From: a virus
Strand: one strand, 5' to 3'
Virus record (IMG/VR): IMGVR_UViG_3300032342_000667
Span: 1 to 28,763 of that record
Length of the DNA: 28,763 bases
Translations under genes and position numbers: made by a program
Notes under the pieces: generated by a model
What the model was told of the DNA's origin: nothing
Seen by the model: only the letters and a program-made list of their open reading frames with translations
The model's database searches: none
Part shown: positions 94 to 14,014 of the stretch, piece after piece
Position numbering within the stretch: position 1 is the stretch's first letter
Layout of the letters: every line of letters begins with the position of its first letter

Positions 94-414
94 CTAACTC
101 CTTCGCTCGGCTTCTAGTTTTGCTATCGCCTCGTCCGACTCGGCCCATACATGCGGTGCCAGTTCAATCGGCCCGACGTACTCCCTTGTTTCTTTCTCGG
201 CTTCGAGTTCCGCAATTCGATTTCCCATTTCGGCGATCACATCGTCACGCCTGCGAATCGCCGCATCGGCTTTTTCGGCACCGGCTGCCTCACAGACTGC
301 AGTAACATCCAGGTAATACAAACCTTTTGGCAACTGCAAATAGGGACTACCAGAGCCACCGCAAGCCTCGATGCTCTGCGTCAATCGTTCGATCGCTTCC
401 GATAGGTCGCTCAT
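94..414 (-). CDS. Hypothetical protein with helical/coiled-coil character
   Basis: A 106-residue protein. The ATG overlaps the stop of the upstream gene (ATGA, 411-414) with AAAGGTGG ahead of it, which supports the start and translational coupling. The N-terminus (MSDLSEAIERLTQSIEACGG) and the middle (about residues 50-75, with RIAELEAEKE) look helical and coiled-coil prone. There is no signal peptide or membrane segment. Not recognised; it belongs to the leftward operon with thyX. Confidence 0.65.
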   Translation of the reverse strand: MSDLSEAIERLTQSIEACGGSGSPYLQLPKGLYYLDVTAVCEAAGAEKADAAIRRRDDVIAEMGNRIAELEAEKETREYVGPIELAPHVWAESDEAIAKLEAERRS

Positions 415-1175
415 GGCTCACCACCTTTCAGCAGATTGTGCAATTCGATTAACGCATCGCCTAATTCTGAAAAGTTGTCGTGGTCGTAAACCCGATACCC
501 GTCCTCCGTGTGGCACGTCCCCTCGCACGATAGGTATATGACGCCCTGGTCGCTGCCTCCAATTTCGACAATCGAATACAGGTGACTGTCTGCCTTATCA
601 ATCCGATCCCGCAGCTTCGCGTTCTCGGCTTGTAATAAGCCGCATTCACGACTCAATCGTTCCGTTTGGTTTCGTAGCAGTTGCTCTAGCTTCGCGTTCT
701 CGGCTTCGAGTCGAACTGCATTATCCAATTGCACGCGGTGTTGTAAGGTGCGCTCTTCCAGCCGCTCCGACAGACTCGCGTTCTCGGCTTCTGCTTTTCG
801 TGCTCGCCTCATAAAATTGATAGCCGCCCTCATCACTACTTCCAATCGCTCTTCGAGCGTCCCCAGAATTGGCGTCATGTCCATCGAGTTCATGGCGTTA
901 CGTTGTTCGTACGTGAGTTCCGGAAGGTGGCAAACGCCTTCGGTTTCAGGATCATTTCCGGCGCCTTCGGTTTCAGGATCATTTCCGGCAATACCTCGTA
1001 TTGATTCACAGAAGGAGTTCCAAGAACCAACGCACTCCTGGAGACTCGGGAATGGCCCTGATATACACCCCACTCCAGTGGATGTCTCCACGGCGGCCCA
1101 CGCATACTCCGTTCCGAAGGATCCAGCCACTTCCACCGTCCAGCCATCGAGTATCGTCAAGGTTCGTTCCAGCAT
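411..1175 (-). CDS. Hypothetical coiled-coil protein with an exact 9-residue tandem duplication
   Basis: A 254-residue protein. AAAGGAG lies about 8 nt upstream of the ATG at 1175. The N-terminal 60 residues are Trp/Gly rich and likely globular. Next come two perfect copies of GNDPETEGA, encoded by a 27-bp tandem DNA duplication at 935-988. Residues about 120-200 form a long coiled coil with three AENA(K/S)L heptad repeats, themselves encoded by near-identical DNA. The C-terminus is acidic. No catalytic motif is seen. The coiled coil suggests an oligomeric or scaffolding role, but that is inference only. Confidence 0.7.
   Translation of the reverse strand: MLERTLTILDGWTVEVAGSFGTEYAWAAVETSTGVGCISGPFPSLQECVGSWNSFCESIRGIAGNDPETEGAGNDPETEGVCHLPELTYEQRNAMNSMDMTPILGTLEERLEVVMRAAINFMRRARKAEAENASLSERLEERTLQHRVQLDNAVRLEAENAKLEQLLRNQTERLSRECGLLQAENAKLRDRIDKADSHLYSIVEIGGSDQGVIYLSCEGTCHTEDGYRVYDHDNFSELGDALIELHNLLKGGEP
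935..988 (-). repeat. Perfect 2 x 27 bp in-frame tandem duplication
   Basis: Positions 935-961 and 962-988 are identical and encode a 9-residue repeat (GNDPETEGA) inside the coiled-coil protein gene at 411-1175. Perfect identity at the DNA level points to a recent duplication. Confidence 0.9.
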
Positions 1176-1211
1176 TCTATCGCTCCTTTGTCGTACCTTA
1201 ACCGTGCCTTA

Positions 1212-1235
1212 CCGCATTCCCTATCCAGCATTCCC
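1212..1235 (-). repeat. Dispersed GGGAATGCGG repeat: one exact and one variant copy
   Basis: Read leftward, a variant (GGGAATGCTGG, 1235-1225) is followed by an exact copy (1221-1212). Both lie in the 163-bp gap between the gene ending at 1339 and the start of 411-1175, oriented with transcription. The rest of the gap (1236-1338) holds the imperfect palindrome TTCAGCGCTTAAA but no gene or convincing promoter that I can see. Confidence 0.9.
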
Positions 1236-1338
1236 TGCTTCACGAAGTACTATTGAATCTCATTTAAGCGCTGAAGTTGTTTGATACCGAGTGGTTACGT
1301 CAGAAGCCACGTTTCTTTCCGGAAGTTCTCCAGGAAAT

Positions 1339-1554
1339 CTACTCCAAGAACTGCCAGTCAGGATTCAGGCGAATCCGTTCGACTCCATGTTTCCGGATTT
1401 CTAAAATCACCTTGTACAGCGAGTGGCAGTTGGTGTCGATCCATTCCCCATCCGCTTCCACCCAGACGTTCATCGGGCCGTTGGTGTGCTGCCCGGAGGT
1501 GATCGTGGGGTGGCTGAATGGGGTTTGCAGGACTCGGAATTTACCTCGCTCCAC
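1339..1554 (-). CDS. Small hypothetical protein, probable GTG start
   Basis: About 71 residues if it starts at the GTG at 1554. This start is preferred over the longer ATG at 1596 because it has GGAG at good distance and overlaps the end of the upstream gene by only 14 bp. The sequence includes NVWVEADGEWIDTN and a basic C-terminal half (EIRKHGVERIRLN). The pattern resembles a small beta-rich domain. No family recognised. Confidence 0.5.
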   Translation of the reverse strand: MERGKFRVLQTPFSHPTITSGQHTNGPMNVWVEADGEWIDTNCHSLYKVILEIRKHGVERIRLNPDWQFLE

Positions 1555-1846
1555 GGTACATCTCCGGAAAGCCAGCCTGCACGTGCCACTGGTCAATCAA
1601 TTGCTGAACCTCGGTTGGTGCCGATCCGCCACCGCTGATCCCGCTCGACTGAATCGGTATCGTTTTTGACACCGATACAAGCATGTCGAACACTCTCACG
1701 GAATTGAGCCCAATACGGCTTGAATAGTTGTATCCAAGTCCCACCAGCGTCATTTGAATTGTTTTGCTACTCGTGCTGGTGATATCGCATCGTCTCCCGG
1801 GATCAGCTTGCAGCCAGTCATTCAGTGAATGGTCGATGTTCCTCAT
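1541..1846 (-). CDS. Hypothetical protein in leftward operon
   Basis: A 101-residue protein. Its ATG overlaps the stop of the upstream gene (ATGA, 1843-1846), which supports the start and coupling. The middle is beta-prone (QMTLVGLGYNYSSRIGLNS) with a Gly/Ser-rich linker near residue 80. No cysteine pairs, membrane segment or motif recognised. Function unknown. Confidence 0.6.
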   Translation of the reverse strand: MRNIDHSLNDWLQADPGRRCDITSTSSKTIQMTLVGLGYNYSSRIGLNSVRVFDMLVSVSKTIPIQSSGISGGGSAPTEVQQLIDQWHVQAGFPEMYRGAR

Positions 1847-2094
1847 ACCCCACGGTCCCTTTCCATCTTCAGTGAAGCCGCCACCCTGATGAGACGATTG
1901 GCGGTAATCTCGGCGCTGTGGTACTGGATCTCCTCACTGGCGTCCTGTCCCATGCCGATCTCCACCCCCAGTGCCAAGCAGAGTCCCTCGATCACGACGT
2001 CGTTGTCCGGGATCTTCCCAGCGTCATCCATCGCTTCGATCGTGTCCAATAGACGACTTGCCAGTCTCTTGATTGCTTTTTTTCTGTTTCCCAT
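1843..2094 (-). CDS. Hypothetical protein, helical
   Basis: An 83-residue protein starting MGNRKKAIKRL, with GGAAG upstream of the ATG at 2094. A longer reading from 2148 would start on the ATG inside a GGGAATGCGG repeat and translate two more repeats as RECGECG, so I reject it. The body is predicted mostly helical and acidic. It ends in an ATGA overlap with the next gene. Function unknown. Confidence 0.6.
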   Translation of the reverse strand: MGNRKKAIKRLASRLLDTIEAMDDAGKIPDNDVVIEGLCLALGVEIGMGQDASEEIQYHSAEITANRLIRVAASLKMERDRGV

Positions 2095-2110
2095 AGTCTT
2101 CCTTGCGTTT

Positions 2111-2152
2111 CCGCATTCCCCGCATTCCCTTTTGAAATAATCCCGCATTCCC
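2111..2152 (-). repeat. Three GGGAATGCGG repeats between two operon genes
   Basis: Exact copies at 2152-2143, 2129-2120 and 2120-2111 (the last two share one base), oriented with leftward transcription. The first overlaps the TAG stop of the gene at 2152-2532, so the stop codon is part of the extended repeat TAGGGAATGCGG. They fill the gap before the gene starting at 2094. Confidence 0.95.
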
Positions 2153-2532
2153 TATCGTGCTGAATGGGCGCTCCGTGTGCGAAGTTGACCCGGAGCGGCC
2201 GCTTGCAAAAAGAACAACGCCTGCTCGGTCAGTACGTCCTCGTCCTTGTCTGGTAACACGCCAGCGTAGTGCGGCAACTGCGCCAGCACTTCCGCCACCC
2301 AAGGTCCCGTGTGCGCCACGTGAAAGGCGGTGGATGGCGTCAGGATAGCGAAGAGAACAGCCCGCAGGTTCATGCTCTGCTTGGGGGTCAGTCTGATCTG
2401 ATCCCGTTCAATCGCAGCCTCCCCCTCCAGTGTCTGGATCTTGTGGATGGCTTGCGAAACGATCTCAGCCTGCCAAGAATCCAGGGAGCAGGGTTCCGTG
2501 ATTATCTCCTGCAGCTCGTCGATCAGCTTCAT
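2152..2532 (-). CDS. Hypothetical protein in leftward operon
   Basis: A 126-residue protein. GGAGG lies 7 nt upstream of the ATG at 2532, and the ATG overlaps the upstream stop (ATGA). The first half is acidic and helical (MKLIDELQEIITEPCSL). A more hydrophobic stretch with small residues follows around residues 50-85 but is not a clear membrane segment. The TAG stop is shared with the first base of a GGGAATGCGG repeat. No family recognised. Confidence 0.65.
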   Translation of the reverse strand: MKLIDELQEIITEPCSLDSWQAEIVSQAIHKIQTLEGEAAIERDQIRLTPKQSMNLRAVLFAILTPSTAFHVAHTGPWVAEVLAQLPHYAGVLPDKDEDVLTEQALFFLQAAAPGQLRTRSAHSAR

Positions 2533-2864
2533 GTTTTATCCTCCAGTTCCTTGGTGAACCCAGGGTCTTCCTTCACGACTCTCTTCGCGTAATTCTTCCC
2601 GCGGATCCTGCTCAGGTAGTCAAACAGCGTCCGCGTCTTGGGAGGGTAACACTTAATGCACCGCCACCCTGGAGCGACGTTCCCAAGCAAATCTCCCGTG
2701 ACCGGCAGGTAGGTGTCTCCTGATCCGCAGGTGGGGCAGAACACGATCTCCTCTTCCACTTCACCCTCGACGTTCTTCACTGGTGGCGTGAGGTCCTTGG
2801 TGGTTTTCACGGGAGCGACCTTCTTCTTAGTGTTGCGTGCGTCCAGGCGAAATGAATCGTCCAT
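2529..2864 (-). CDS. Small zinc-ribbon-like protein
   Basis: A 111-residue protein. GAGAGGAGA lies 5 nt before the ATG at 2864. After a basic, Lys/Pro-rich N-terminal tail come CPTCG (about residue 43) and CIKC (about residue 73), a CxxC/CxxC arrangement typical of zinc ribbons. The C-terminal third is basic (SRIRGKNYAKRVV). Nucleic-acid or protein binding is plausible but not shown. It overlaps the upstream gene by 38 bp. Confidence 0.65.
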   Translation of the reverse strand: MDDSFRLDARNTKKKVAPVKTTKDLTPPVKNVEGEVEEEIVFCPTCGSGDTYLPVTGDLLGNVAPGWRCIKCYPPKTRTLFDYLSRIRGKNYAKRVVKEDPGFTKELEDKT

Positions 2865-3159
2865 GAAGTCTCCTCTCCACCAGCGCTTCGATATGACAGG
2901 GGCTCTTTGTTATATCCGCGGGCGTGTGTTGGTTCATCGCGAATATCAGGCGATGCACCGACTCCACGGAGGAGTGCTTCACGTTGTTGATCATCACGGA
3001 TTGCAGGCGGATGGTTCGACCATCAAGATCCACCGCCCCCTCCCTGGTCCAGGCGGAAACGACATTCCTTGTCCTGCCAATCACCGCGCTTAGCTTGGCG
3101 ATCATCAGGGGAGTTTCGGTGGTGTAGTCAAACACGGCTATATCCTGAGTTTGGTCCAT
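2827..3159 (-). CDS. Putative helix-turn-helix-like DNA-binding protein
   Basis: A 110-residue protein. Residues about 20-45 (IAKLSAVIGRTRNVVSAW, then a basic/polar segment and IRLQSV) have the spacing of a helix-turn-helix followed by a wing, like small phage regulators. The start at 3159 has only a weak ribosome binding site and overlaps thyX by 22 bp; the end overlaps the zinc-ribbon gene by 38 bp. It is a candidate for a factor binding the operators in this genome. That link is inference. Confidence 0.5.
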   Translation of the reverse strand: MDQTQDIAVFDYTTETPLMIAKLSAVIGRTRNVVSAWTREGAVDLDGRTIRLQSVMINNVKHSSVESVHRLIFAMNQHTPADITKSPCHIEALVERRLHGRFISPGRTQH

Positions 3160-3947
3160 TCATTCAAACCATCGACCTCGATCCGCTCCCCGCCGTGTAA
3201 CATCATGGGGAACTTGGCGCGAATGATCTCCCCCACGTCGTGGAAGACTTGACGAATCTCCCATTCGGCATAACGGGAGGTCCTCAATTCCAGCATGTGT
3301 CTCAACGATCTGACATTGACCGTCCATCCGATCTCGTTCGTGGCGCCATTCGGCATGATCCTTCGCAGAGCGGACGTGAGCCGTTTCTTCGTGGCAAAGT
3401 CAGTACCCGGATCGTCGAGTTTCAATAGGGTACGGTAGTGCCTCACGTTCTGCTTGATCATCGACAGCAGATCGCGCATGGCATCGCCAATGGACCTGTC
3501 AGCCATGTATCCAGGGATGATCTTCTCCTCCAGTTCAGGCGGCAACACAAGTTCGGCATCCTCCACCGTGCAGTATCGTCCGCTAGTTTGCGAAAATGCT
3601 GTTCCAACACGGTGTCTGACCAGTTCGTGAGTGAAGACCCTGGAACAGTCAGTGGTCAAGAAATTCAGGTTGCAGTGCTCGAAGACTGATCCGTGTCCAG
3701 AGCGAATCGTGGCGGTGATGTTGTCAGCAATCTCCCGCGTCTTCCCGATATTGGAGTTCTTGCCCAACACCAGTGATCGGTAGCAGAGTTTCGCGTACAG
3801 CGAGACGAGAATCATCCCGCTGGACATCCCGTCCTCTTCGGCGATGCTCATGTCCCGCAGGAATTCCACCTGCCCAGTGTCGCTCAGGTACTCCGTCACT
3901 CCCTGGTAATCAATCTCCGTCGCTCCGATCAAGTACGTCTTTGGCAT
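3138..3947 (-). CDS. thyX: Flavin-dependent thymidylate synthase ThyX
   Basis: A 269-residue protein. ThyX methylates dUMP to dTMP using FAD, NADPH and methylenetetrahydrofolate. Visible signatures are the flavin/dUMP motif region HELVRHRVGTAFSQTSGRY (about residues 107-125) and the C-terminal TVNVRSLRHMLELR block followed by AEWEIRQ, which matches the conserved SLRHF.ELR..-.AQWEIR region of the family. The spacing from RHR to the conserved Ser is one residue longer than the classical RHRx7S. AGGAG precedes the ATG at 3947. It is in the leftward operon, so it is probably made with the other early/metabolic genes to supply thymidine for phage DNA. Confidence 0.93.
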   Translation of the reverse strand: MPKTYLIGATEIDYQGVTEYLSDTGQVEFLRDMSIAEEDGMSSGMILVSLYAKLCYRSLVLGKNSNIGKTREIADNITATIRSGHGSVFEHCNLNFLTTDCSRVFTHELVRHRVGTAFSQTSGRYCTVEDAELVLPPELEEKIIPGYMADRSIGDAMRDLLSMIKQNVRHYRTLLKLDDPGTDFATKKRLTSALRRIMPNGATNEIGWTVNVRSLRHMLELRTSRYAEWEIRQVFHDVGEIIRAKFPMMLHGGERIEVDGLNEWTKLRI

Positions 3948-4152
3948 GAATCAGCTCCTGGTGAACATAACGATGTACCCGATTTCCACCACAACCGCCG
4001 TCCAGTGGCTGATCACGGAAGTAGGCGTGCTGCTCCACTACCACCGTGCTTCCAAGCGAGACTTTCCACTCGATGACGATTTGCTTCGGTGATTCCCCTA
4101 CGTCGATCACGGCCCCGTCCCGAGGTCCTCCAAAAAGAAAAGCTCTGTCCAT
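3910..4152 (-). CDS. Small hypothetical phage protein with a GGPRDG motif, first gene of the leftward operon
   Basis: An 80-residue protein starting MDRAFLFGGPRDGAV. This start is chosen because a GGAGGGGGG purine run lies about 10 nt upstream; the longer reading from 4254 would cross the promoter and translate the repeats. The pattern GGPxDG near the N-terminus, a central beta region and a late tyrosine/histidine segment (HRYVHQ) recurs in small uncharacterised phage proteins. It overlaps thyX by 38 bp. Function unknown. Confidence 0.6.
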   Translation of the reverse strand: MDRAFLFGGPRDGAVIDVGESPKQIVIEWKVSLGSTVVVEQHAYFRDQPLDGGCGGNRVHRYVHQELIHAKDVLDRSDGD

Positions 4153-4169
4153 TTTCCCGCACCCCCCTC

Positions 4170-4199
4170 CCGCATTCCATGCCTTGGCCCCGCATTCCC
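4170..4199 (-). repeat. GGGAATGCGG repeats at the start of the leftward transcript
   Basis: An exact copy (4199-4190) is followed by a variant TGGAATGCGG (4179-4170), both oriented leftward. The exact copy begins about one base after the expected transcription start of the promoter at 4207-4234, so it would form the very 5' end of the operon mRNA. Confidence 0.9.
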
Positions 4200-4206
4200 T
4201 GCTGAG

Positions 4207-4234
4207 ATTATAGCAAGTGTCGAAATGTGTGCAA
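4207..4234 (-). promoter_or_regulatory. Leftward sigma70-type promoter
   Basis: On the minus strand, TTGCAC (4234-4229), a 16-bp spacer and a perfect TATAAT (4212-4207). The expected start is near 4200. It is correctly placed to drive the whole leftward operon starting with the gene at 4152. Confidence 0.75.
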
Positions 4235-4279
4235 TAGTGCCAGAACTCAACCAAATGTGACCAAATGTGTGTAAATGTG
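4223..4279 (+). repeat. 10-bp-phased AAATGTG direct repeats (iteron/operator-like)
   Basis: AAATGTG occurs at 4223-4229, 4253-4259, 4263-4269 and 4273-4279. The last three are exactly 10 bp apart and the first is exactly 30 bp before them, so all lie on one face of the helix. The first overlaps the spacer of the leftward promoter. The arrangement suggests cooperative protein binding, as repressor/activator sites or replication iterons. No clear rightward promoter is seen in 4280-4392, only weak candidates near 4287-4315. Confidence 0.6.
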
Positions 4280-4392
4280 GGAATGTTTGTTTATTTCTTA
4301 GCATGTGGCAAACTCGGTATTGTTGCTTATCTAAGTCCTTGTTGTGATTGGTTTATCGCCCAGCCGATGGCGAATCACACAAGGAGCATTTC

Positions 4393-7391: not shown

Positions 7392-7438
7392 CGATTTCGG
7401 CAATGGGGGTCTTCGTTCCTGGCGAACGATTCCCATTT

Positions 7439-7476
7439 ATGCGGACCATCAAGCTCCGGTGGTCCGCATTTTTTTT
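7439..7476 (+). terminator. Rho-independent terminator after the head genes
   Basis: A perfect 10-bp stem (ATGCGGACCA / TGGTCCGCAT, 7439-7448 and 7460-7469) with an 11-nt loop, followed by a run of T to 7476. It ends the scaffold-capsid-decoration transcript. Confidence 0.9.
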
Positions 7477-7483
7477 GCGCTAC

Positions 7484-7511
7484 TTGACGCATTAGCCATA
7501 CACGCTAAACT
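7484..7511 (+). promoter_or_regulatory. Promoter with embedded palindromic operator, copy 1
   Basis: TTGACG (7484-7489), 16-bp spacer, TAAACT (7506-7511). Inside it is TTAGC-N7-GCTAA (7492-7508), overlapping the -10 box. The same boxes, spacing and palindrome occur at 10140-10167, so both promoters are probably controlled by the same regulator. Expected start near 7518, right before a hairpin. Confidence 0.75.
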
Positions 7512-7517
7512 GTACTG

Positions 7518-7603
7518 CGTTGGTCTGGCCGATCGACACTGGTTTCAGCCGTTTAATCGAGCCCAGTAGTAATACCGGAGGTAGAGCGGCTGGAGCCTTT
7601 TTT
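7518..7603 (+). ncRNA. Small structured RNA candidate 1
   Basis: A free-standing unit with its own promoter and terminator and no ORF. From the predicted start come a hairpin (GTTGGTC / GATCGAC, 7519-7537, 5-nt loop, two G-U pairs), then a closing stem GGTTTCAGCCG / CGGCTGGAGCC (7541-7551, 7587-7597; 11 pairs with two G-U) and six T. The large loop holds TCGAGC-CCAGTAGTA (7557-7571), shared with candidate 2 as TCGAGC-GCGCAGTAGCA. A GGGAATGCGG repeat follows immediately. Confidence 0.6.
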
Positions 7604-7613
7604 GGGAATGCGG
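7604..7613 (+). repeat. GGGAATGCGG repeat directly after an RNA terminator
   Basis: An exact copy that starts on the base after the T-run of the small RNA 1 terminator, in the direction of transcription. Confidence 0.9.
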
Positions 7614-7784
7614 GCTGAAGACAGGGAAGAAGCCCAGGAAGAAATAGCCCGTGCGGAGTCTGTTGTGGATCTGCATCCGAGTCTTCGGTGTCTCCCGCAC
7701 GGGCGCGGGGTTTGTGGGGACACCGACATAGAAAGACGTCGATTCGCTGATCGGATGGGTGCCAAGAGATTGGCGAGTGCGAAC
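7614..7784 (+). other. Non-coding structured segment between two terminators
   Basis: No credible gene. It contains a 10-bp perfect stem GCCCGTGCGG / CCGCACGGGC (7647-7656, 7695-7704) with smaller hairpins in its loop (such as GGAT-CTGC-ATCC). ORFs that cross it run through the terminator hairpins on either strand and have no ribosome binding site. No separate promoter was found; it may be read-through from RNA 1, or a second RNA. Confidence 0.4.
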
Positions 7785-7835
7785 GACCCGGTCGCGTCGT
7801 GTTCTCATGGGACACGACGCGGCCGGTCCTTTTTT
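7785..7835 (+). terminator. Strong rho-independent terminator
   Basis: An uninterrupted 10-bp core CGCGTCGTGT / ACACGACGCG (7793-7802, 7812-7821) with a 9-nt loop, extended outward by GACC / GGTC (7785-7788, 7825-7828), then six T (7830-7835). It separates the RNA segment from the gene at 7864. Confidence 0.85.
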
Positions 7836-7841
7836 AATCCA

Positions 7842-7851
7842 TGGAATGCGG
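7842..7851 (+). repeat. Variant repeat TGGAATGCGG after a terminator
   Basis: A one-base variant of GGGAATGCGG, 6 bp after the terminator T-run and 12 bp before the ATG at 7864. Its internal ATG is in frame with that gene. A weaker variant AGGAATGCAG lies at 7871-7880 within the first codons. Confidence 0.75.
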
Positions 7852-7863
7852 GGCCTATTGCAA

Positions 7864-8241
7864 ATGAATGAGGAATGCAGAAAAAACGTCAACACGTTTA
7901 CGACAGGCGCCGTACGAGGGACGGACGCTGACAGCACGAGGTACGATCTGATCAGCCCCGTCGCGATGCGCAGGATCGCCGAGACATACGCCGAAGGGGC
8001 GACGAAGTATGGCGCTCACAACTGGCGGAAGGGGTTTCCCGCTTCGGACCTGATGAACCACGCCCTGAAGCATCTCTACACGTTCTTGGCTGGTGATCGT
8101 TCCGAGGATCATCTAGCGCACGCCACATGGAATCTGATGGCGATCATGCACTTCCAGGAAAAGATGCCAGGGATGATTGACATACCGTGTGAAGCTCCCA
8201 TGCTTCCCGTAGAAAAACTCTCTCCCTGGAAGAGCACATGA
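7864..8241 (+). CDS. Putative dATP/dGTP diphosphohydrolase (MazZ-type N-terminal domain)
   Basis: 125 residues from the ATG at 7864. Residues about 23-105 show the family's run of motifs: YDLISPVAMRRIAETYAEGA, KYGAHNWRKG, SDLMNHALKHLYTF, GDRSEDHLAHATWNL and MAIMHFQE. This is an all-helical metal-dependent nucleotide pyrophosphohydrolase fold related to MazG; relatives cleave dATP/dGTP and shape the phage nucleotide pool. The ribosome binding site is poor. An alternative start at the ATG inside the repeat (7845) is in frame. No purZ or DNA polymerase gene is visible in the window to show which nucleotide is targeted. Confidence 0.75.
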   Translation: MNEECRKNVNTFTTGAVRGTDADSTRYDLISPVAMRRIAETYAEGATKYGAHNWRKGFPASDLMNHALKHLYTFLAGDRSEDHLAHATWNLMAIMHFQEKMPGMIDIPCEAPMLPVEKLSPWKST

Positions 8242-8489
8242 TTGAACATACCTACATCTGCAACATTTGCCACCAAGCCATGCGAACCGATACAGCCCGC
8301 CGCTGGATTGATGGTGTGGTAATCCACACCTCTGGTCCACCAGCAAATCCCACGGAGAGAATGGTGTTAGACAGTTACCCGAGTGGCGGCAGTGTCCACA
8401 TTTGCTCGCGATGTTTTCCTCCCTTGAAAAAGGCCATCGAATCCACGACGTTGGAGATCATAACCCTGCATGTTCCAGAAGTGAGGTGA
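8238..8489 (+). CDS. Small cysteine-pair (zinc-binding-like) protein
   Basis: An 83-residue protein. ATGA overlap with the upstream gene. CNICH at residues 8-12 and CSRCF at about 56-60 form a CxxC...CxxC pair, likely a zinc-binding site. The middle (GVVIHTSGPPANP) is loop-like. A small phage zinc protein of unknown role, translated together with the diphosphohydrolase-like gene. Confidence 0.6.
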   Translation: MIEHTYICNICHQAMRTDTARRWIDGVVIHTSGPPANPTERMVLDSYPSGGSVHICSRCFPPLKKAIESTTLEIITLHVPEVR

Positions 8490-8492
8490 TTT

Positions 8493-8831
8493 ATGATCGA
8501 TTCTCATGCTGAACCAAGTGAGCCAACTAGCGAACAGTGCAACAATCACGACCAAGTGTTCGAGTCGCACGATCACGTTGGCTACGCGATTTGGTATCCG
8601 TCGATGGGCGGATACAGCGGCAAAGCCGTTGCTGTCATGTGTAAGAAGTGGGTCGACGAAGGGACGTCTCGTACCGGAGGCTGTATCGACGTGTATGTCT
8701 GGCACGATGGCGAGTTTCCGTTCCACGACGGAGAACAGCCAACAATCATTCACCACTGCTGCCCGGAAGGGTTCATCACGTTCGGCGAGAAACTTTCGCG
8801 ACTGAACAATAAAGGGCGTGTGAAGACATGA
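8493..8831 (+). CDS. Hypothetical protein
   Basis: A 112-residue protein. GAGGTGA lies just upstream of the ATG and overlaps the end of the preceding gene. The protein is rich in His, Trp, Tyr and Asp, with a compact alpha/beta pattern around GYAIWYPSMGGYSGKAVAVM and IDVYVWHDGEFPF. Not recognised. The ATGA-type overlap with the next gene shows coupling. Confidence 0.6.
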   Translation: MIDSHAEPSEPTSEQCNNHDQVFESHDHVGYAIWYPSMGGYSGKAVAVMCKKWVDEGTSRTGGCIDVYVWHDGEFPFHDGEQPTIIHHCCPEGFITFGEKLSRLNNKGRVKT

Positions 8832-9250
8832 CGCACTCACCTGAACCGTGGATCGAAGGCGAATGGAGGATTAACGAAGAAGCACGCGGTGGCAAAAATC
8901 CGTGCAAGCGTTCCTGGATCTTCACTGCTGGCAGCGGAATCCACTCTGGCGTTCAGCGCGGCGATATCATTGAGGACGTTTTACCACCACCAACCGAGAT
9001 CATTCGACAACTCGACTGCGAGGAAGGCGGTGGCTACGAAATCTCCGATGACGACATGGAACGTATTGTGGCCTGCGTAAACGCCATGGTTGGAATAGAA
9101 CGACCAGTGGAGTTCATGAAGCAGCTCGGGCGAGTGATGATGCGATCTGGAGGAGTTTGCGTGATGCGGGATTTGCCAATGGGCATGATTGGATTCGTGG
9201 AAGAGTTAGAGAAACTCAAAGAGATTCAGTCGTTCGAGGAATTCTGCTAG
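8828..9250 (+). CDS. Hypothetical phage protein of the MTHSPEPW type
   Basis: A 140-residue protein. The start MTHSPEPW and the later segment DDDMERIVACVNAMVGI match a pattern I know from many small uncharacterised phage and prophage proteins (MTHTPEPW ... ARIVACVNAC.GI). Function is not established for that group. The C-terminus is helical (GFVEELEKLKEIQSF). The TAG stop is part of a GGGAATGCGG repeat. Confidence 0.7.
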   Translation: MTHSPEPWIEGEWRINEEARGGKNPCKRSWIFTAGSGIHSGVQRGDIIEDVLPPPTEIIRQLDCEEGGGYEISDDDMERIVACVNAMVGIERPVEFMKQLGRVMMRSGGVCVMRDLPMGMIGFVEELEKLKEIQSFEEFC

Positions 9251-9296
9251 GGAATGCGGTGCCGGAAAGGATGGAAAATATGTCTAGGGAATGCGG
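9250..9296 (+). repeat. Two GGGAATGCGG repeats flanking a gene start
   Basis: Exact copies at 9250-9259 (sharing the G of the upstream TAG stop) and 9287-9296, 37 bp apart. The second lies within the first codons of the gene at 9280 and is translated as RECG. Confidence 0.9.
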
Positions 9297-9489
9297 GGAA
9301 TATTTCATTGATTTCATTGAATTGCGAATGTTGTCAGTTGATGAGCTGAGCGTTCAGCTTCAGTACCGAATGAGGCCACCTGGAAAGAAGGGAGACTGGG
9401 GACCATGGCGAGACGCCAAAGTTCTGACGATCGGGGATCCGGAGAATCAGGCACAGGACGATCGTCCTGCCAAGCTCGCCCCCTTGTGA
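9280..9489 (+). CDS. Small hypothetical protein with a repeat-encoded N-terminus
   Basis: A 69-residue protein from the ATG at 9280, chosen because AAAGGA lies 8 nt upstream; an in-frame ATG at 9271 is too close to that site. It begins MSRECGEYFIDF, where RECG is the translated GGGAATGCGG repeat. The rest (YRMRPPGKKGDWGPWRDAKVL) looks like a small beta domain. It ends in a TGATG overlap with the next gene. Unknown function. Confidence 0.55.
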   Translation: MSRECGEYFIDFIELRMLSVDELSVQLQYRMRPPGKKGDWGPWRDAKVLTIGDPENQAQDDRPAKLAPL

Positions 9490-9698
9490 TGCGGATTTTC
9501 TGTCAGGCCTGCGAGGACGACCTCTCAGATACCGAGCGCACGATCAGTCGAATCTTCGAGGGCAAGTACTACTGCCTGGAGTGCTACACCGAGAAGGCCC
9601 ATGGTCGCGTCTTTTGCTACGAGCGGGAGAACTCCCAGTATCTCGGCGATCATCTGACACCACGTCAGTTCGCAAAACTTGACCGCGAGGACGAATGA
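9489..9698 (+). CDS. Small zinc-ribbon-like protein
   Basis: A 69-residue protein starting MRIFCQACEDDL. CQAC at residues 5-8 and CLEC at about 31-34 make a treble-clef-like CxxC pair, with a further Cys and His nearby (HGRVFCYE). The start overlaps the upstream stop (TGATG). One of several tiny zinc-binding-like proteins in the accessory segment. Role unknown. Confidence 0.6.
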   Translation: MRIFCQACEDDLSDTERTISRIFEGKYYCLECYTEKAHGRVFCYERENSQYLGDHLTPRQFAKLDREDE

Positions 9699-10126
9699 TG
9701 AAGAAGCCGTTGGATGTGATTGAGGTGGTGGCGGTGATCAACGTCAAACTCCCAGACCCAGCCGTGAGGGCCTTACGCCTGCTGACGAGAACCTACCTCT
9801 CGCAGGCGCTGCATTTGCTGAATATCGAAGAGAACTTGGCGGACACCGCCTCCGGTAATTCAGCGACCACCACCCAGTACGATCTGATTCAGAAATCACT
9901 GAGAGCCTTTGGTGGCGCCCCTGGAAAAGACGAGGCCGCGGAACTGCTGCAAGAAGTGATCGGCCGGATTTCCGAGTTCAGGAGTAACGTGGCGCGTTTC
10001 ACCTCACGGAAAGATCGTTTGCTGGCCGAGATCAAAACCCTGCAAGAACAGGTCGATAAGTTGATCCAGAAAAAACGCCTCTTCAAAGAGGTCAGGAATC
10101 ATCACGCCGAGCCAGTGCAGGAATGA
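9695..10126 (+). CDS. Hypothetical coiled-coil protein
   Basis: A 143-residue protein. GAGG lies ahead of overlapping ATGATG starts at the end of the previous gene. The N-terminus is helical/hydrophobic (ALRLLTRTYLSQALHLL). Residues about 90-130 form a coiled coil (LLAEIKTLQEQVDKLIQKKR). No catalytic motif. A weak AATCAT/ATGATT stem followed by seven T at the stop may end this transcript just before the next promoter. Confidence 0.65.
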   Translation: MMKKPLDVIEVVAVINVKLPDPAVRALRLLTRTYLSQALHLLNIEENLADTASGNSATTTQYDLIQKSLRAFGGAPGKDEAAELLQEVIGRISEFRSNVARFTSRKDRLLAEIKTLQEQVDKLIQKKRLFKEVRNHHAEPVQE

Positions 10127-10139
10127 TTTTTTTGGGCCA

Positions 10140-10167
10140 TTGACAGATTAGCTTTTGCCGCTAATCT
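10140..10167 (+). promoter_or_regulatory. Promoter with embedded palindromic operator, copy 2
   Basis: TTGACA (10140-10145), 16-bp spacer, TAATCT (10162-10167). A perfect 8-bp inverted repeat AGATTAGC-N7-GCTAATCT (10145-10152, 10160-10167) spans from the last base of the -35 to the end of the -10. The TTAGC-N7-GCTAA core matches copy 1 at 7492-7508. A bound protein would block polymerase, so repression is the likely mode. Confidence 0.85.
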
Positions 10168-10173
10168 ATGTGA

Positions 10174-10266
10174 ATCACCAACGCGAGTTGGCAAGGTCGA
10201 CCGCACGACCAAAGGTGAGAAAAGCTGGCGACTTCGAGCGCGCAGTAGCACTCACCTTCCCTTTTT
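10174..10266 (+). ncRNA. Small structured RNA candidate 2
   Basis: It starts at the predicted initiation site. Three hairpins follow: CCAAC-GCGA-GTTGG (10178-10191, a GNRA tetraloop); GGTCG-ACCGCA-CGACC (10195-10210); and a closing stem AAGGTGAG / CTCACCTT (10212-10219, 10251-10258). After CCC and five T the transcript may end, though the CCC makes it a weaker terminator. The loop contains TCGAGC-GCGCAGTAGCA, shared with RNA 1. The second loop contains CCGCA, the exact complement of TGCGG in the dispersed repeat. If transcription reads through, this is the leader of the Cas12-like gene. Confidence 0.6.
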
Positions 10267-10272
10267 ATGTAG

Positions 10273-10282
10273 GGGAATGCGG
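10273..10282 (+). repeat. GGGAATGCGG repeat between RNA 2 and the Cas12-like gene
   Basis: An exact copy just after the RNA 2 T-run. It is followed by a GCGCT-TCGTAGT-AGCGC hairpin (about 10289-10305) and then the ribosome binding site of the next gene. Confidence 0.9.
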
Positions 10283-10326
10283 AGAGAGCGCTTCGTAGTA
10301 GCGCGTAAAAAAGAAAGGGGATGCGT

Positions 10327-11583
10327 ATGTTAGTTAGTGTGACTCCATTTGAGATTTTCAAGTTCGCTGGTGGGGACAAGGCTCGTCGCGCGCAGTGGAA
10401 GCTAGTCTCCGAGGAATGCCAGCAGATTCACAATCGAGTCTGGCAGCTATTCCTCCAGTGGCATAGCGTTAATGGGTCTGTTGCAAAGATCAAGGCTGGC
10501 TTGGAGGCCTTGGCTGCTTGGCGTGCGGCAGGTGGAGACAAGGAGACGAAACCTAAGCCGGAAGTGGTGGCGATCGGCTCCGAGCTTAGCAAGATCATCT
10601 ACCGTGATGTATCTGATGGCTGGCCGGATGTTCACTCACGCACCAGAGTGCTGCTGCTGAATCGTTTAGTATCCGGCATCCGAACCCGCAAGGCTTGCAG
10701 AGGCTCCTTGCCGGGTTGGATCAATATCCTGTTCTGCCGGGAGGGAATCCCATCCTTCACGCATCCAGTTCCGATTCCATTCGATAAGGTAAACTCCCAT
10801 CTGATTCCTCCTGACGACGAGAACGATAACTGGCGGCTGTCGGTGAAGGTGGAGCGGTCGCCTAGTGACGGCCACTCCCTGGTAGATGAGTGTGAACTCA
10901 TGACCCGCAAGCGAAAGACACGCAGAATCGCTGGCGTGCTCTCTAGGATCGCTGAGGGACTGTCATCGTTTCGTGGCTCCTATTTGGTATGTGATCGCGG
11001 GAAGTGGGTTGCCATGATCTGCCACACCTCAGCCGCGGAGCAGGCTAACATGCTCGACTCCACCAGGAAGGCCATCCTCATGCCGGGGGTGCATAACGCG
11101 TGGGTGGTGAAGAAGAACGGCATGATACGTCGTCGATTCGCTGACCGGAATGGTGAAGCGAGGCACGTCCTTGGTATGCGTCGGTTGATCTTCGGTGAAC
11201 GTCAGGAGCGGCAGGCAAATTACCGCTGGGCCTCGTCCAGCCTTAAGGGTCACGGCCGCGGGAAAGCCACGCACGGATGGGAAAAGCTCTCCAGCCGCTG
11301 GCGTGATTTCGTGAAGCGTTACAACAACGAGATCACGACGAAGCTGGTGAAGGAGTGCGTGCAGGACGGGATTGGAACGATCGAGTACTACCAGCCAGTT
11401 GATTTCCAGCGCGATCGGCGCTGGCTAACCGGGAAAGACTACCGTTGTGGCTGGGACTATTTTCAGGTTAAAACGATGCTCTCCCAGAAGTGTCAACGGG
11501 CTGGCATCGTGTTTACAACGAAGCAGATCGGTGCGGTGGAGGAGGGCGCGAAGCCAGCCACCATACCTCGAAAAACTGCCTAA
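10327..11583 (+). CDS. Cas12/TnpB-like protein, apparently nuclease-dead
   Basis: 418 residues from the ATG at 10327 (AAAGGGG with 6-nt spacing; the ATG at 10321 is too close). The C-terminal half follows the Cas12/TnpB plan: a strand pair with GKWVAMI (about 225-231); a RuvC-I-like segment LMPGVHNAWVV (251-261); KGHGRG with basic helices (307-312); a long helix (LSSRWRDFVKRYNNEITTKL); and a RuvC-II-like strand GIGTIEYYQP with Glu353. At RuvC-I the expected Asp before (P/L)G is Met252. The protein stops about where the TSxxCxxCG zinc ribbon and RuvC-III Asp should follow. It would therefore bind RNA and DNA without cutting, like TnpB-derived repressors (TldR). It sits behind RNA 2 and before the repeat array. 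The family call is from motif reading. Confidence 0.65.
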   Translation: MLVSVTPFEIFKFAGGDKARRAQWKLVSEECQQIHNRVWQLFLQWHSVNGSVAKIKAGLEALAAWRAAGGDKETKPKPEVVAIGSELSKIIYRDVSDGWPDVHSRTRVLLLNRLVSGIRTRKACRGSLPGWINILFCREGIPSFTHPVPIPFDKVNSHLIPPDDENDNWRLSVKVERSPSDGHSLVDECELMTRKRKTRRIAGVLSRIAEGLSSFRGSYLVCDRGKWVAMICHTSAAEQANMLDSTRKAILMPGVHNAWVVKKNGMIRRRFADRNGEARHVLGMRRLIFGERQERQANYRWASSSLKGHGRGKATHGWEKLSSRWRDFVKRYNNEITTKLVKECVQDGIGTIEYYQPVDFQRDRRWLTGKDYRCGWDYFQVKTMLSQKCQRAGIVFTTKQIGAVEEGAKPATIPRKTA

Positions 11584-11590
11584 CTATCAA

Positions 11591-11710
11591 GGGAATGCGG
11601 GCTGCTGGGCGCACTGGAGGTGAAGTGGGTAAGGGAATCAATAGGGAATGCGGGAATTCCGACTCGCCTCGACGGGTGAAGTGGGCGAGGGAATCAATAG
11701 GGAATGCGGG
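11591..11710 (+). repeat. Three GGGAATGCGG repeats with a 56-bp tandem duplication
   Basis: Exact copies at 11591-11600, 11644-11653 and 11700-11709. The last two lie in a duplicated 36-bp block (11619-11654 and 11675-11710, 34/36 identical) offset by 56 bp, twice the 28-bp period of the later array. Each block also has the half-copy AGGGAATC just before the full repeat. The segment follows the Cas12-like stop and has no credible gene. Confidence 0.9.
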
Positions 11711-11721
11711 CCGGGCAAGCA

Positions 11722-11988
11722 ATGACTAGATTTTTCCGATCGTGTTTCATCTGCCATGATATCGTCTCAGTCAGTGCAAAGGTCGCTGGGCGTGGTGAGA
11801 AGGTGTATTGTTCCGATCATGGCAAGTACGCCACGGTCATAACCAGAAAGGCCAATACTTATGTCAGAGAACCAGGAAAACGCCGTGTGGTCGCAGTCAA
11901 TCGCCAAGGCCCGGGAGCTTCGCCGGAAGGGGGCGGGATTGCTGTGGGATCGCGTGAAGATTCTGATCGGGGTTTACAAGGACAGTGA
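11722..11988 (+). CDS. Small Cys/His protein, overlaps the next gene by 128 bp
   Basis: 88 residues from the ATG at 11722. CFICH (about 8-12) and CSDH (about 30-33) suggest a zinc-binding site in the first 45 residues. The C-terminal 40 residues lie in another frame over the start of the next gene and look low-quality (Gly/Arg/Ser rich), as if only the N-terminal part is under selection. No good ribosome binding site; an in-frame ATG at 11704 lies inside the repeat. Function unknown. Confidence 0.45.
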   Translation: MTRFFRSCFICHDIVSVSAKVAGRGEKVYCSDHGKYATVITRKANTYVREPGKRRVVAVNRQGPGASPEGGGIAVGSREDSDRGLQGQ

Positions 11989-12367
11989 CTTTCTGGCGCA
12001 CTGCGATTCACTCGATCGCAATGCGGAGGACGTGCTCGACGACGAGCTGTCGGACACCTGTTCGGAGTTCCTGCCTCTGAAGATTACCATGGAGTACTTT
12101 CCCGAGAAAAACGACTGGCTGAACACGAAGATTGACGTCCTGCGTGCCAAGGCCGAGGAGATGTGCAAGAAAAGCCGTCATGATGGAGAGGAGATCACGC
12201 GTGATCGGCCTTCCTGGAAAGAACGGTACATGGAATTGAAGCGGAAGTACGACGCCTCCCAGATCGAGTGGCAGCTCAAGCACGACGCCCTGCAGAAGAG
12301 CCACGACGTCATGGAGGCCCGGTTTGAGGAGCTGTCGAAGGTGCTGCAGTTCCAGGCGACGCATTGA
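11861..12367 (+). CDS. Hypothetical coiled-coil protein preceding the repeat array
   Basis: A 168-residue protein. AGAAAGG lies about 9 nt before the ATG. The protein is acidic and strongly helical. Residues about 85-168 look like a continuous coiled coil (KERYMELKRKYDASQIEWQL, then SHDVMEARFEELSKVL). No enzymatic motif. It lies between the Cas12-like gene and the 28-bp repeat array on the same strand, so it could be part of the same module; this is position-based inference. Confidence 0.65.
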   Translation: MSENQENAVWSQSIAKARELRRKGAGLLWDRVKILIGVYKDSDFLAHCDSLDRNAEDVLDDELSDTCSEFLPLKITMEYFPEKNDWLNTKIDVLRAKAEEMCKKSRHDGEEITRDRPSWKERYMELKRKYDASQIEWQLKHDALQKSHDVMEARFEELSKVLQFQATH

Positions 12368-12371
12368 AAAG

Positions 12372-12548
12372 GGGAATGCGGTAGTACTCCTCAACCCTAG
12401 GGAATGCGGGTGGGAACCGTGATGTCAGGGAATGCGGGGGGGTCATCGGCTCGATAGGGAATGCGGGTATACGTCGCATCAACTGGGAATGCGGGGCAAG
12501 GGTGATGCTAGGGAATGCGGGTTCGTCGTTTTGCCCGAGGGAATGCGG
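12372..12548 (+). repeat. Array of seven GGGAATGCGG repeats, about 28-bp period, unique spacers
   Basis: Exact repeats start at 12372, 12400, 12428, 12457, 12485, 12511 and 12539 (steps 28, 28, 29, 28, 26, 28). The six intervening spacers are 16-19 bp and unrelated to each other. The repeat is usually extended to AGGGAATGCGGG. A degenerate eighth unit (ACAATGCGAG) falls in the spacer of the promoter at 12561-12588. The layout is CRISPR-like in miniature, but the repeat is far shorter than a CRISPR repeat and has no internal hairpin. It could instead be an array of protein-binding sites next to a promoter. Confidence 0.9.
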
Positions 12549-12560
12549 GGTACACTAGGC

Positions 12561-12588
12561 TTGACAAAAACAATGCGAGAAGTAGGAT
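12561..12588 (+). promoter_or_regulatory. Promoter at the 3' end of the repeat array
   Basis: TTGACA (12561-12566), 16-bp spacer, TAGGAT (12583-12588). The expected start (about 12594) coincides with the first base of a perfect 9-bp hairpin. It lacks the TTAGC-N7-GCTAA operator of the other two RNA promoters but abuts the seven-repeat array. Confidence 0.7.
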
Positions 12589-12593
12589 GAACG

Positions 12594-13255
12594 CCACTGA
12601 GGGATGAGATCCTCAGTGGTGCGGAAGGCGAGCGAGATTAAAGGCCAAACGTAATATGAGTACATCACTGCAATTTTCGTTACGTTTGGCAAAGCTCGCT
12701 AACGAAAACTCACTTCAACAGCCAGCTCCTTCGGGTTCTGGCTGTTGTCGTTTGCGTCACAGGCATTGCTTGCCAAACGGGCTTTCTCTGACCACACCCG
12801 TAACAGTCTGGTGGTCGAAATCCGATATGCCAAAAACCCGTAAGACGGGTGGCGAAGTAGTGGGTCGAACGGTTGTGGGCAATCTGGTTCACGACGAGAG
12901 TCGAGCACGGACAGCTCGTCTCTTCCACCAAAAGCACATGGCATCTTCGGTAATCGGTGAAACGCACAAAGCGCTGCCCGGCTTCAACTCGGCAGATTCC
13001 AGGAGTATTCCTGGAACGCGTGCGTCTAAAGCACAAACAGATTAACGTGTACCGATTGAAAACTCATGTCACCCCCCCTTTAGCTGTTGAGGGGGAAAGG
13101 GGGTGTCTTCGCCAGAGTTTGACCCCACTTCAGTCAGACGTCACCATCGGCGGACTCCAAGAGTGTCGAGTGCTCTTGGCTGAGGAGGGTCGTCACGAGA
13201 CAAGCCTGTCACGCCTATCGACCCGCGAAAAGAGCCTTCAAAGGCTAAGAGAAAG
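12594..13255 (+). ncRNA. Large, densely structured non-coding RNA candidate
   Basis: About 660 nt with its own promoter and no credible ORF. Perfect stems in order: CCACTGAGG/CCTCAGTGG (12594-12619); AGCGAG/CTCGCT enclosing GCCAAACGTAA/TTACGTTTGGC (12631-12700); AACGA/TCGTT enclosing AACAGCCAG/CTGGCTGTT with a UUCG loop (12701-12752); GACCAC/GTGGTC (12790-12816); ACCCGT/ACGGGT (12836-12850); GACGAG/CTCGTC (12893-12920); AATCGGT/ACCGATT (12952, 13057) enclosing ACGCAC/GTGCGT and two hairpins, one of them TTCCAGGA/TCCTGGAA; a C-rich/G-rich stem (13070-13105); CCAAGAG/CTCTTGG (13157-13179); GGGTCG/CGACCC (13187-13224). It recalls the GOLLD/ROOL class by size and phage context only. It may end as the leader of the gene at 13260. 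Confidence 0.65.
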
Positions 13256-13259: not shown

Positions 13260-13442
13260 ATGAAAAAACAACAGACCGACGCCCAGAAGCGACGCGACAG
13301 GAGGCCAGTGAAATTCACCCCTGTCCATGCTTGTTCGCGCTGCGGCGTTAAACGCGTGGTGACTGTTCAGGAGGAGAGGCAGGCCGCACGACTGCGGTGC
13401 TTTGAGTGTGGTGGACCAATGAACCGCATCAGCCAAACTTGA
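13260..13442 (+). CDS. Tiny zinc-ribbon protein
   Basis: A 60-residue protein. A basic N-terminal tail (MKKQQTDAQKRRDRRPVKF) is followed by CSRCG and CFECGG, a CxxC-x20-CxxCG zinc ribbon. The tail suggests RNA or DNA contact. It lies directly downstream of the large structured RNA, so it may be translated from the same transcript and could bind it, which is inference. The ribosome binding site is weak (AAGAGAAAG). Confidence 0.6.
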   Translation: MKKQQTDAQKRRDRRPVKFTPVHACSRCGVKRVVTVQEERQAARLRCFECGGPMNRISQT

Positions 13443-13468
13443 CTGGTAGTGGCGGGATACGCTACCTT
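13439..13468 (+). promoter_or_regulatory. Possible promoter ahead of the packaging genes
   Basis: TTGACT (13439-13444), 18-bp spacer, TACCTT (13463-13468), with the inverted repeat GGTAG / CTACC (13445-13449, 13462-13466) between the boxes. The predicted start would fall at the ATG at 13475, giving a leaderless message, so this is uncertain. The inverted repeat could instead be an RNA hairpin. Confidence 0.35.
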
Positions 13469-13474
13469 TCAGGA

Positions 13475-14014
13475 ATGAGCACGACGATTGTGGACAATAA
13501 CGGCAACACCCGGGTGGTGCCTGACATCAAGAAGCGGATGCGAAAGTGCATCGTCTGTGGACTGCCCAGGTTTGACGCTGACTTCACGTCCGATCAGGTG
13601 CGCTGCGACGTCTGCGTGTTCCGGGCGCGCGACAAGGAGTTGACTGAAAAGGTCGATTCCGCGCTGCAAAACACCGTGCTTTCGATCTTGCAGCGGACCC
13701 AGACTGGTGAAAGTGCCACGGAGTTTGCTCCGGTGGTGGACGGATTGTTCGCCCGATTCGGCGGTGTTGATGGGTTCTGCGACGACTGGTACAGCCAGAT
13801 CGCCATCGCCATGCGTGATCGTCCTGGTACGATGGGAATCCTGAACCACTTCAAGGCGATTGCTGAGCTGGTGAAGAAGGCCAAGCCAGACTCCCCTCTG
13901 GGTGATCTCTCCAAGAAAACTGATGCCGAGTTGATATCGGCCGTCAGGAGCTTCTTGGTGACTGAGCAAACTCCCCGTATCGAAGGACCGTTCTCGGTGG
14001 CTCCTCTGCCATAG
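13475..14014 (+). CDS. Putative small terminase subunit
   Basis: 179 residues from the ATG at 13475. The N-terminal region has CIVCG and CDVC (about 24-45), a zinc-finger-like pair. The rest is helical: an oligomerisation-like segment (LTEKVDSALQNTVLSILQR), then GLFARFGGVDGFCDDW and a final helical part. Size, helical make-up and position immediately upstream of the large terminase fit a DNA-recognition terminase subunit; sequence alone is not diagnostic. AGGA is directly adjacent to the ATG, an unusual spacing. Confidence 0.5.
   Translation: MSTTIVDNNGNTRVVPDIKKRMRKCIVCGLPRFDADFTSDQVRCDVCVFRARDKELTEKVDSALQNTVLSILQRTQTGESATEFAPVVDGLFARFGGVDGFCDDWYSQIAIAMRDRPGTMGILNHFKAIAELVKKAKPDSPLGDLSKKTDAELISAVRSFLVTEQTPRIEGPFSVAPLP

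What the first reader, a model, noticed from the sequence alone, without database searches (positions are those of the whole stretch)
12372..12548. Miniature CRISPR-like array: 10-bp repeat, 28-bp period, 16-19 bp unique spacers
Seven exact GGGAATGCGG copies at steps 28, 28, 29, 28, 26, 28 with unrelated spacers. The repeat is shorter than any CRISPR repeat I know, yet the layout (conserved repeat, variable spacer of guide-like length) sits one small gene away from a Cas12-like protein. Alternatively it is an array of binding sites upstream of the promoter at 12561.
Basis: partly seen in the sequence, partly recalled or inferred. Interest (0 to 1): 0.85.

Follow-up and report, generated by a model that had tools for sequence, protein, structure and literature searches.

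The report
Dispersed phage control sites, clustered sevenfold
The CRISPR-like mini-array is real, but its 10-bp repeat also occurs twelve more times, almost always in the gaps between this phage's accessory genes and always pointing the way those genes are read, so it is most likely a cluster of regulator-binding sites; an apparently inactivated Cas12f-like protein encoded nearby makes an RNA-guided version worth testing.

Summary
In detail: seven exact GGGAATGCGG copies at 12372-12548, steps 28/28/29/28/26/28, unrelated spacers. The window holds 19 exact copies; 18 are noncoding (at most one base shared with a gene) and all 19 run in the direction of local transcription. All lie in two lineage-specific gene blocks (411-4250 and 7392-13253); none lies in the conserved virion-gene backbone. 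Motif: (t)AGGGAATGCGG(g), 10-12 bp, asymmetric, with no conserved flanks or RNA stem. A CRISPR array is not supported: short repeats scattered on both strands, no convincing anti-repeat, no spacer matches. The spacer-turnover test was impossible, because the only other carrier is nearly the same virus (2 SNPs in 9,846 bp, array identical). Best reading (about 0.6): directional regulator sites of the stoperator/operator kind, with the seven-site cluster separating the accessory operon from a promoter-like sequence at 12561 and a strongly structured noncoding stretch. The nearby Cas12f-like protein lacks two RuvC catalytic residues and the C-terminal Zn-ribbon/RuvC-III part, and is absent from the relatives that lack the motif. 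It might therefore be the regulator, reading TAM plus seed through a guide RNA (about 0.1, untested).

The parts
12372..12548 (+). seven-copy cluster of GGGAATGCGG (12372, 12400, 12428, 12457, 12485, 12511, 12539)
1212..1235 (-). exact copy 1212-1221 and one-mismatch copy 1226-1235, 36 nt upstream of gene 411-1175
2111..2152 (-). three exact copies (2111, 2120, 2143) in the gap upstream of the gene starting at about 2094
4157..4199 (-). exact copy 4190-4199 at the predicted start of the leftward transcript, with degenerate copies at 4170 and 4157, in the 5' leader of gene 3910-4152
4207..4234 (-). promoter-like TTGCAC-16-TATAAT with extended -10 (TGC); motif copy 4190-4199 begins 7 nt after the -10 hexamer
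   Evidence: sequence, (read by eye; the consensus scan did not list it)
7604..7613 (+). exact copy directly after a TTTTTT tract
7842..7851 (+). one-mismatch copy (TGGAATGCGG) shortly after the T-tract of the strong terminator-like hairpin 7788-7826
9250..9296 (+). exact copies at 9250 (overlaps a stop codon by one base) and 9287 (the only copy inside a likely CDS)
10273..10282 (+). exact copy upstream of the Cas12f-like gene, a few nt after a TTTTT tract that follows an inverted repeat
11591..11710 (+). three exact copies (11591, 11644, 11700) directly downstream of the Cas12f-like gene; the last two are the 3' ends of two 36-nt repeats (11619-11654, 11675-11710; 94% identical, 20 nt apart)
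10321..11583 (+). Cas12f/TnpB-like protein, 420 aa; RuvC-I Asp aligned to Met, RuvC-II Glu aligned to Tyr, no C-terminal Zn ribbon or RuvC-III; candidate nuclease-dead
12561..12588 (+). sigma70-type promoter-like TTGACA-16-TAGGAT, 12 bp after the last array copy
   Evidence: the scan found no excess over shuffles, so weak by itself
12590..13107 (+). noncoding, strongly structured stretch downstream of that promoter-like sequence; candidate structured RNA, no Rfam match
   Evidence: (12590-13070, z=-6.0)

Best explanation
GGGAATGCGG is a lineage-specific, asymmetric recognition site of 10-12 bp for a sequence-specific regulator of the phage's accessory (probably early) genes. Single or grouped sites sit in the gaps between those genes, in one orientation relative to transcription. 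The seven-site cluster at 12372-12548 is the densest group; it sits between the end of the rightward accessory operon (12367) and a promoter-like sequence (12561) that precedes a structured noncoding stretch and then the virion genes. Most likely mechanism (inferred): the regulator binds duplex DNA and either stops elongating RNA polymerase (stoperator/roadblock) or blocks initiation where the site lies at a start (4190), with the cluster insulating the operon from, or controlling, the 12561 promoter. Shown here: the sites, their number, placement, direction, exactness, and restriction to the two non-backbone blocks. Inferred: that a protein or RNP binds them, that binding is to DNA, and that the effect is on transcription.
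For: 19 exact copies where 3rd-order simulations give a commonest 10-mer of 4-6. 18/19 are noncoding, though only about 15% of 0.4-12.6 kb is noncoding (12 non-array copies alone: P about 1e-8). All 5 minus copies lie in the leftward gene block and all 14 plus copies in the rightward one. The motif is asymmetric with sharp borders and no flank pairing (P=0.23), as expected for a binding site rather than an RNA hairpin. Copies occur only in the two blocks without homologues in relatives, never in the backbone. One copy lies where a promoter-like sequence would start transcription; three lie 0-9 bp after T-tracts, at least one of them a strong terminator, where a roadblock would help termination. 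The layout matches published cluster A mycobacteriophage stoperators: 13-14 bp sites without dyad symmetry, 20-30 per genome, oriented with transcription (PMC6550527). Relatives carry other lineage-specific clusters: six CACAGTGCGCCAA in about 180 bp in L025/L026, and five GGAGGTGGAGTGATG at apparent gene starts in G006.
Against: No cognate DNA-binding protein was identified in the window. No integrase or HTH_3 repressor was found in the window or nine related records, so an L5-type lysogenic repressor is unlikely as such. The near-constant 28-bp step of the cluster is not a whole number of helical turns (2.67) and is unexplained. The only other carrier is nearly identical, so conservation cannot be tested. 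An RNA-level site in leader transcripts would show the same strand bias.
Confidence: 0.6

Rival explanations
1. The sites are targets of the phage's own nuclease-dead Cas12f-like protein: one guide RNA directs it to a TAM plus short seed (together 10-12 bp) at about 19 places, making an RNA-guided stoperator system; the cluster is a multi-target block.
For: The protein is Cas12f-like (PADLOC E=1.9e-14; PDB 9i8y E=4.7e-9) with both testable RuvC residues replaced and the C-terminus missing. It sits in the middle of the motif-bearing block, and both it and the motif are absent from the relatives searched. TldR, a phage-encoded dead TnpB, represses with guides as short as 6 nt next to a TAM (PMC13418256), so a 10-12 bp site is about the right length.
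Against: No guide RNA identified: upstream noncoding 10127-10326 folds only mildly (z=-2.1) and the downstream region does not (z=+0.5). No clear TAM/seed partition in the motif. Co-occurrence rests on a single lineage.
Confidence: 0.1
2. The motif works as RNA: a protein-binding or antisense-pairing site in the 5' leaders, with the seven-copy cluster as a sponge or 3'UTR element.
For: Strict co-direction with genes; many copies within 60 nt upstream of starts; AGGGA fits the ANGGA core of CsrA-type sites (own knowledge); a 12-nt wobble complement lies in a terminator at 7463-7474.
Against: No consistent accessibility or flanking stem. Conservation of TGCGG exceeds what CsrA needs. The array RNA folds no better than shuffles (z=-1.0). 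The 7463 match is expected about 0.9 times by chance and lies largely inside a stem.
Confidence: 0.17
3. The copies are promoters or activator sites for a phage-encoded RNA polymerase or transcription activator.
For: Co-directional, intergenic, some located after terminators and before genes; the cluster is just upstream of a promoter-like sequence.
Against: No PF00940 RNA polymerase hit in the window or nine related records, although that search's controls did not ring, so this is weak. Seven tandem promoters 28 bp apart are implausible, and some copies lie directly before start codons.
Confidence: 0.09
4. A miniature CRISPR-like array: the 10-12 nt repeat with 16-19 nt spacers makes guides for the Cas12f-like protein.
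For: Repeat-spacer layout and guide-like spacer length; Cas12f-like gene nearby; two 36-nt repeats 20 nt apart directly downstream of that gene.
Against: Most copies are not in an array and occur on both strands; no clear anti-repeat; no targets; resemblance to a remembered Cas12f1 repeat is not significant (P=0.06); repeat shorter than known CRISPR repeats.
Confidence: 0.03

Closest known systems
Stoperators/operators of cluster A mycobacteriophages (L5, Bxb1)
   Same: short asymmetric sites, about 20 per genome, dispersed, oriented with transcription, some at promoters (PMC6550527)
   Different: unrelated sequence; a seven-copy cluster; exact rather than degenerate copies; no repressor or integrase found; restricted to the accessory blocks
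Start-associated sequences (SAS) of cluster K mycobacteriophages
   Same: 11-19 copies of a 13-bp asymmetric repeat, mostly one orientation, lineage-specific, near gene starts (PMC3203893)
   Different: here distances to the start vary from 12 to over 250 nt and the array is about 850 nt from the next called gene, so the motif is not tied to translation starts
TldR (TnpB-like nuclease-dead repressors)
   Same: phage-encoded Cas12/TnpB-family protein with RuvC catalytic residues lost; a short site would suffice for targeting (PMC13418256)
   Different: Cas12f-like rather than a clear TnpB descendant; no guide RNA found; would target about 19 sites on the phage itself
Type V-F CRISPR-Cas (Cas12f)
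   Same: homologous effector family near repeats with spacers
   Different: apparently dead and truncated effector, 10-12 nt repeats that are mostly dispersed, no clear anti-repeat
TIGR-Tas
   Same: phage-borne tandem interspaced short repeats
   Different: no Nop-domain protein found and no dual-spacer unit seen

Membership tests
CRISPR array (type V-F) | identical repeats of roughly 23-37 nt confined to an array | tested here: not met
   conserved unit is 10-12 nt; 12 of 19 copies lie outside the array, on both strands
CRISPR array (type V-F) | spacers matching mobile elements or other targets | tested here: inconclusive
   no self matches beyond random; only chance-level hits in phages and plasmids; 16-19 nt spacers are too short for sensitive searching
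CRISPR array (type V-F) | tracrRNA anti-repeat complementary to the repeat | tested here: inconclusive
   one 12-nt wobble complement, in a terminator at 7463; about 0.9 expected by chance
CRISPR array (type V-F) | active RuvC effector | tested here: not met
   Asp aligned to Met, Glu aligned to Tyr, C-terminal part absent; low-identity alignment
Stoperator system (cluster A type) | many short asymmetric sites oriented with transcription, mostly intergenic | tested here: met
   19/19 co-directional, 18/19 noncoding
Stoperator system (cluster A type) | cognate immunity repressor in a temperate phage | tested here: inconclusive
   no HTH_3 or integrase in the window or nine related records, but all records are fragments and the L5-type repressor itself was not searched
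Stoperator system (cluster A type) | repressor-dependent block of elongation at the sites | not testable with these tools
   needs a reporter assay
SAS (cluster K type) | located immediately upstream of translation starts | tested here: not met
   distances 12 to over 250 nt; array copies about 850-1020 nt from the next start used
TldR | Cas12/TnpB homologue with inactivated RuvC | tested here: met
   from alignments at 24-27% identity only; the fold prediction failed (pLDDT 32)
TldR | adjacent guide RNA matching a target next to a TAM | tested here: inconclusive
   no convincing scaffold; no separable TAM
TIGR-Tas | Nop-domain Tas protein | tested here: not met
   no Nop-domain Pfam match among the window proteins scanned

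The most novel reading that the evidence does not exclude
A phage domesticated a Cas12f-like protein into a nuclease-dead, RNA-guided regulator and seeded its own accessory genes with about 19 copies of one TAM-plus-seed site, including a seven-site cluster: a self-targeting, RNA-programmed transcription-control network in a virus.
Probability: 0.1. Interest if true: 0.92.

Novelty: new variant of a known kind. Interest (0 to 1): 0.5.

Why it matters
If the sites are ordinary operators, this is a clear example of lineage-specific dispersed control sites in an uncultured phage group, with an unusually dense cluster and exact copies, and it warns that short repeat arrays near Cas-like genes need a genome-wide motif check before being called CRISPR. 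If the nuclease-dead Cas12f-like protein is the reader of the sites, it would be an RNA-guided transcription network that a phage uses on itself, which is not among the systems I know.

Tried and rejected
Closer array relatives: a triple-motif scan of IMG/VR found only the near-identical L001; a double-motif scan found only unrelated repeat-rich sequences besides it. Terminase relatives and capsid relatives lack the motif family. Two scans of genome contigs gave no relatives. Resemblance of the 36-nt repeats to the 3' end of 16S rRNA: within the range of shuffles. Resemblance to a Cas12f1 CRISPR repeat recalled from memory: shuffle P=0.06 and not verifiable in the library. Hairpins formed by motif flanks: P=0.23. 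Spacer homology from tandem duplication: not significant after trimming one base. Structure prediction of the Cas12f-like protein: single-sequence model too poor to use (pLDDT 31.9). Coding repeat: spacing is not a multiple of three. Rfam: nothing meaningful.

Full report
OBSERVATION. The seven GGGAATGCGG copies and their steps are exactly as described. The cluster is not chance: it is the densest part of a family of 19 exact copies in the window (5 on the minus strand, 14 on the plus strand, 0 for the reversed control pattern), while 3rd-order simulations give a commonest 10-mer count of only 4-6. One-mismatch copies are few, and several adjoin exact ones or fit the same pattern (1226, 4170, 7842). 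An alignment of the 19 exact copies shows an A before (14/19) and a G after (14/19), and otherwise no strongly conserved flank.

WHERE THE COPIES ARE. I made gene calls from the ORF list and upstream sequence. Eighteen of 19 copies are noncoding (two of these share one base with a neighbouring gene); one (9287) lies inside a likely small CDS. For the 12 copies outside the cluster the probability of so many noncoding placements is about 1e-8. All copies point in the direction of local transcription. They occur only in 1.2-4.2 kb (leftward genes) and 7.6-12.5 kb (rightward genes). Comparison with related viruses shows that exactly these two blocks lack homologues, whereas scaffold, capsid, decoration, the 13406-14014 gene, terminase, portal and several tail-side genes have them. 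In relatives the decoration gene and the gene homologous to 13406-14014 lie close together (about 150 bp apart in L028), so 7392-13253 is a lineage-specific block.

CONTEXT OF INDIVIDUAL COPIES. The copy at 4190 begins 7 nt after the -10 hexamer of a promoter-like sequence (TTGCAC-16-TATAAT, extended -10, read by eye). The copies at 7604, 7842 and 10273 lie 0-9 nt after T-tracts; the one before 7842 belongs to an 18-bp hairpin terminator. The cluster ends 12 bp before a TTGACA-16-TAGGAT sequence (consensus matches in the region are no more frequent than in shuffles, so each is weak). Downstream, 12590-13070 is noncoding and folds far better than shuffles (z=-6.0); so does the noncoding stretch at the other edge of the block, 7392-7862 (z=-5.4). 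Neither matches Rfam. The cluster itself does not fold unusually (z=-1.0).

RELATIVES. The only other contig with the cluster (L001/L002, 9,846 bp) differs from the window by two substitutions, neither in the cluster; it is the same virus population and cannot show spacer turnover or drift. Relatives found by terminase (32-50% identity) and by capsid (42-69%) lack the motif family. Some carry other clusters: six copies of CACAGTGCGCCAA in about 180 bp, in inverted pairs (L025/L026), and five copies of GGAGGTGGAGTGATG on the minus strand at what look like gene starts (G006). Lineage-specific short repeats therefore seem to recur in this phage group. Integrase and HTH_3 families give no hits in the window and nine related records, with controls ringing. 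All records are fragments or of unknown completeness.

THE CAS12-LIKE PROTEIN. The 420-aa product of 10321-11583 matches Cas12f (PADLOC, E=1.9e-14, residues 32-397), Cas12u3 (E=3.9e-12), NCBIfam guided_TnpB (E=4.4e-8, below its cut-off) and PDB Cas12f1 chains (E=4.7e-9). In the alignments the RuvC-I aspartate position is Met, the RuvC-II glutamate position is Tyr, and the protein ends about 23 residues after the aligned region, before the Zn ribbon and RuvC-III. Alignment at 24-27% identity leaves some doubt, and the fold prediction was unusable. It is absent from the 11 related records searched. Two 36-nt near-identical repeats, each ending in the motif, lie just downstream of it, 20 nt apart.

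INTERPRETATION. Dispersed, exact, asymmetric, co-directional and intergenic sites limited to accessory gene blocks are best explained as binding sites of a regulator of those genes. The published system with the same layout is the stoperator/operator set of cluster A mycobacteriophages (PMC6550527); cluster K start-associated sequences (PMC3203893) resemble it in copy number and direction but sit at translation starts, which is not so here. The binding factor is unknown. A protein binding DNA is the default. The dead Cas12f-like protein is a specific candidate, because phage TldR proteins repress with guides as short as 6 nt beside a TAM (PMC13418256), so a 10-12 bp site is about what such a complex would need. 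I found no guide RNA: the 200 nt upstream of the gene fold modestly (z=-2.1) and the downstream gap not at all. I therefore give that reading about 0.1.

CRISPR-LIKE READING. It fails on repeat length and on dispersal over both strands, and no positive evidence was found for an anti-repeat or targets. The RNA-level reading remains possible, since strand bias would look the same. What keeps the case open is the near-constant 28-bp step of the cluster (2.67 helical turns), which none of the readings explains well.

LIMITS. The window is probably a fragment: related contigs reach 63.8 kb, so the regulator may be encoded outside it.

Noticed in passing
window 12590-13107: Noncoding stretch of about 500 nt right after the 12561 promoter-like sequence folds far better than shuffles (z=-6.0 for 12590-13070) and has no Rfam match; candidate structured RNA.
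   Followed up: partly
window 7392-7862: Second long noncoding stretch with strong structure (z=-5.4), two terminator-like hairpins and motif copies, at the other edge of the lineage-specific block.
   Followed up: partly
window 10321-11583: Phage-borne Cas12f-like protein that appears nuclease-dead and C-terminally truncated.
   Followed up: partly
window 10127-10326: Noncoding 200 nt upstream of the Cas12f-like gene with several consecutive hairpins (z=-2.1); possible guide or tracr scaffold, unproven.
   Followed up: partly
window 4218-4290: AAATGTG/CACATTT repeated about four times in the divergent region upstream of the leftward promoter-like sequence (TRF lists 2 copies of ACCAAATGTG); possibly a second regulator's sites.
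   Followed up: no
L025 1676-1854: Related phage: six copies of CACAGTGCGCCAA (one with a mismatch) in about 180 bp, some in inverted pairs that could form hairpins.
   Followed up: partly
G006 27098-28912 (minus strand; L038 7098-8912): Related phage: five copies of GGAGGTGGAGTGATG, apparently ribosome-binding site plus start codon, resembling start-associated sequences.
   Followed up: partly
window 3138-3947 and 7759-8241: ThyX-like thymidylate synthase and a dATP/dGTP diphosphohydrolase-like protein in the two non-backbone blocks.
   Followed up: no
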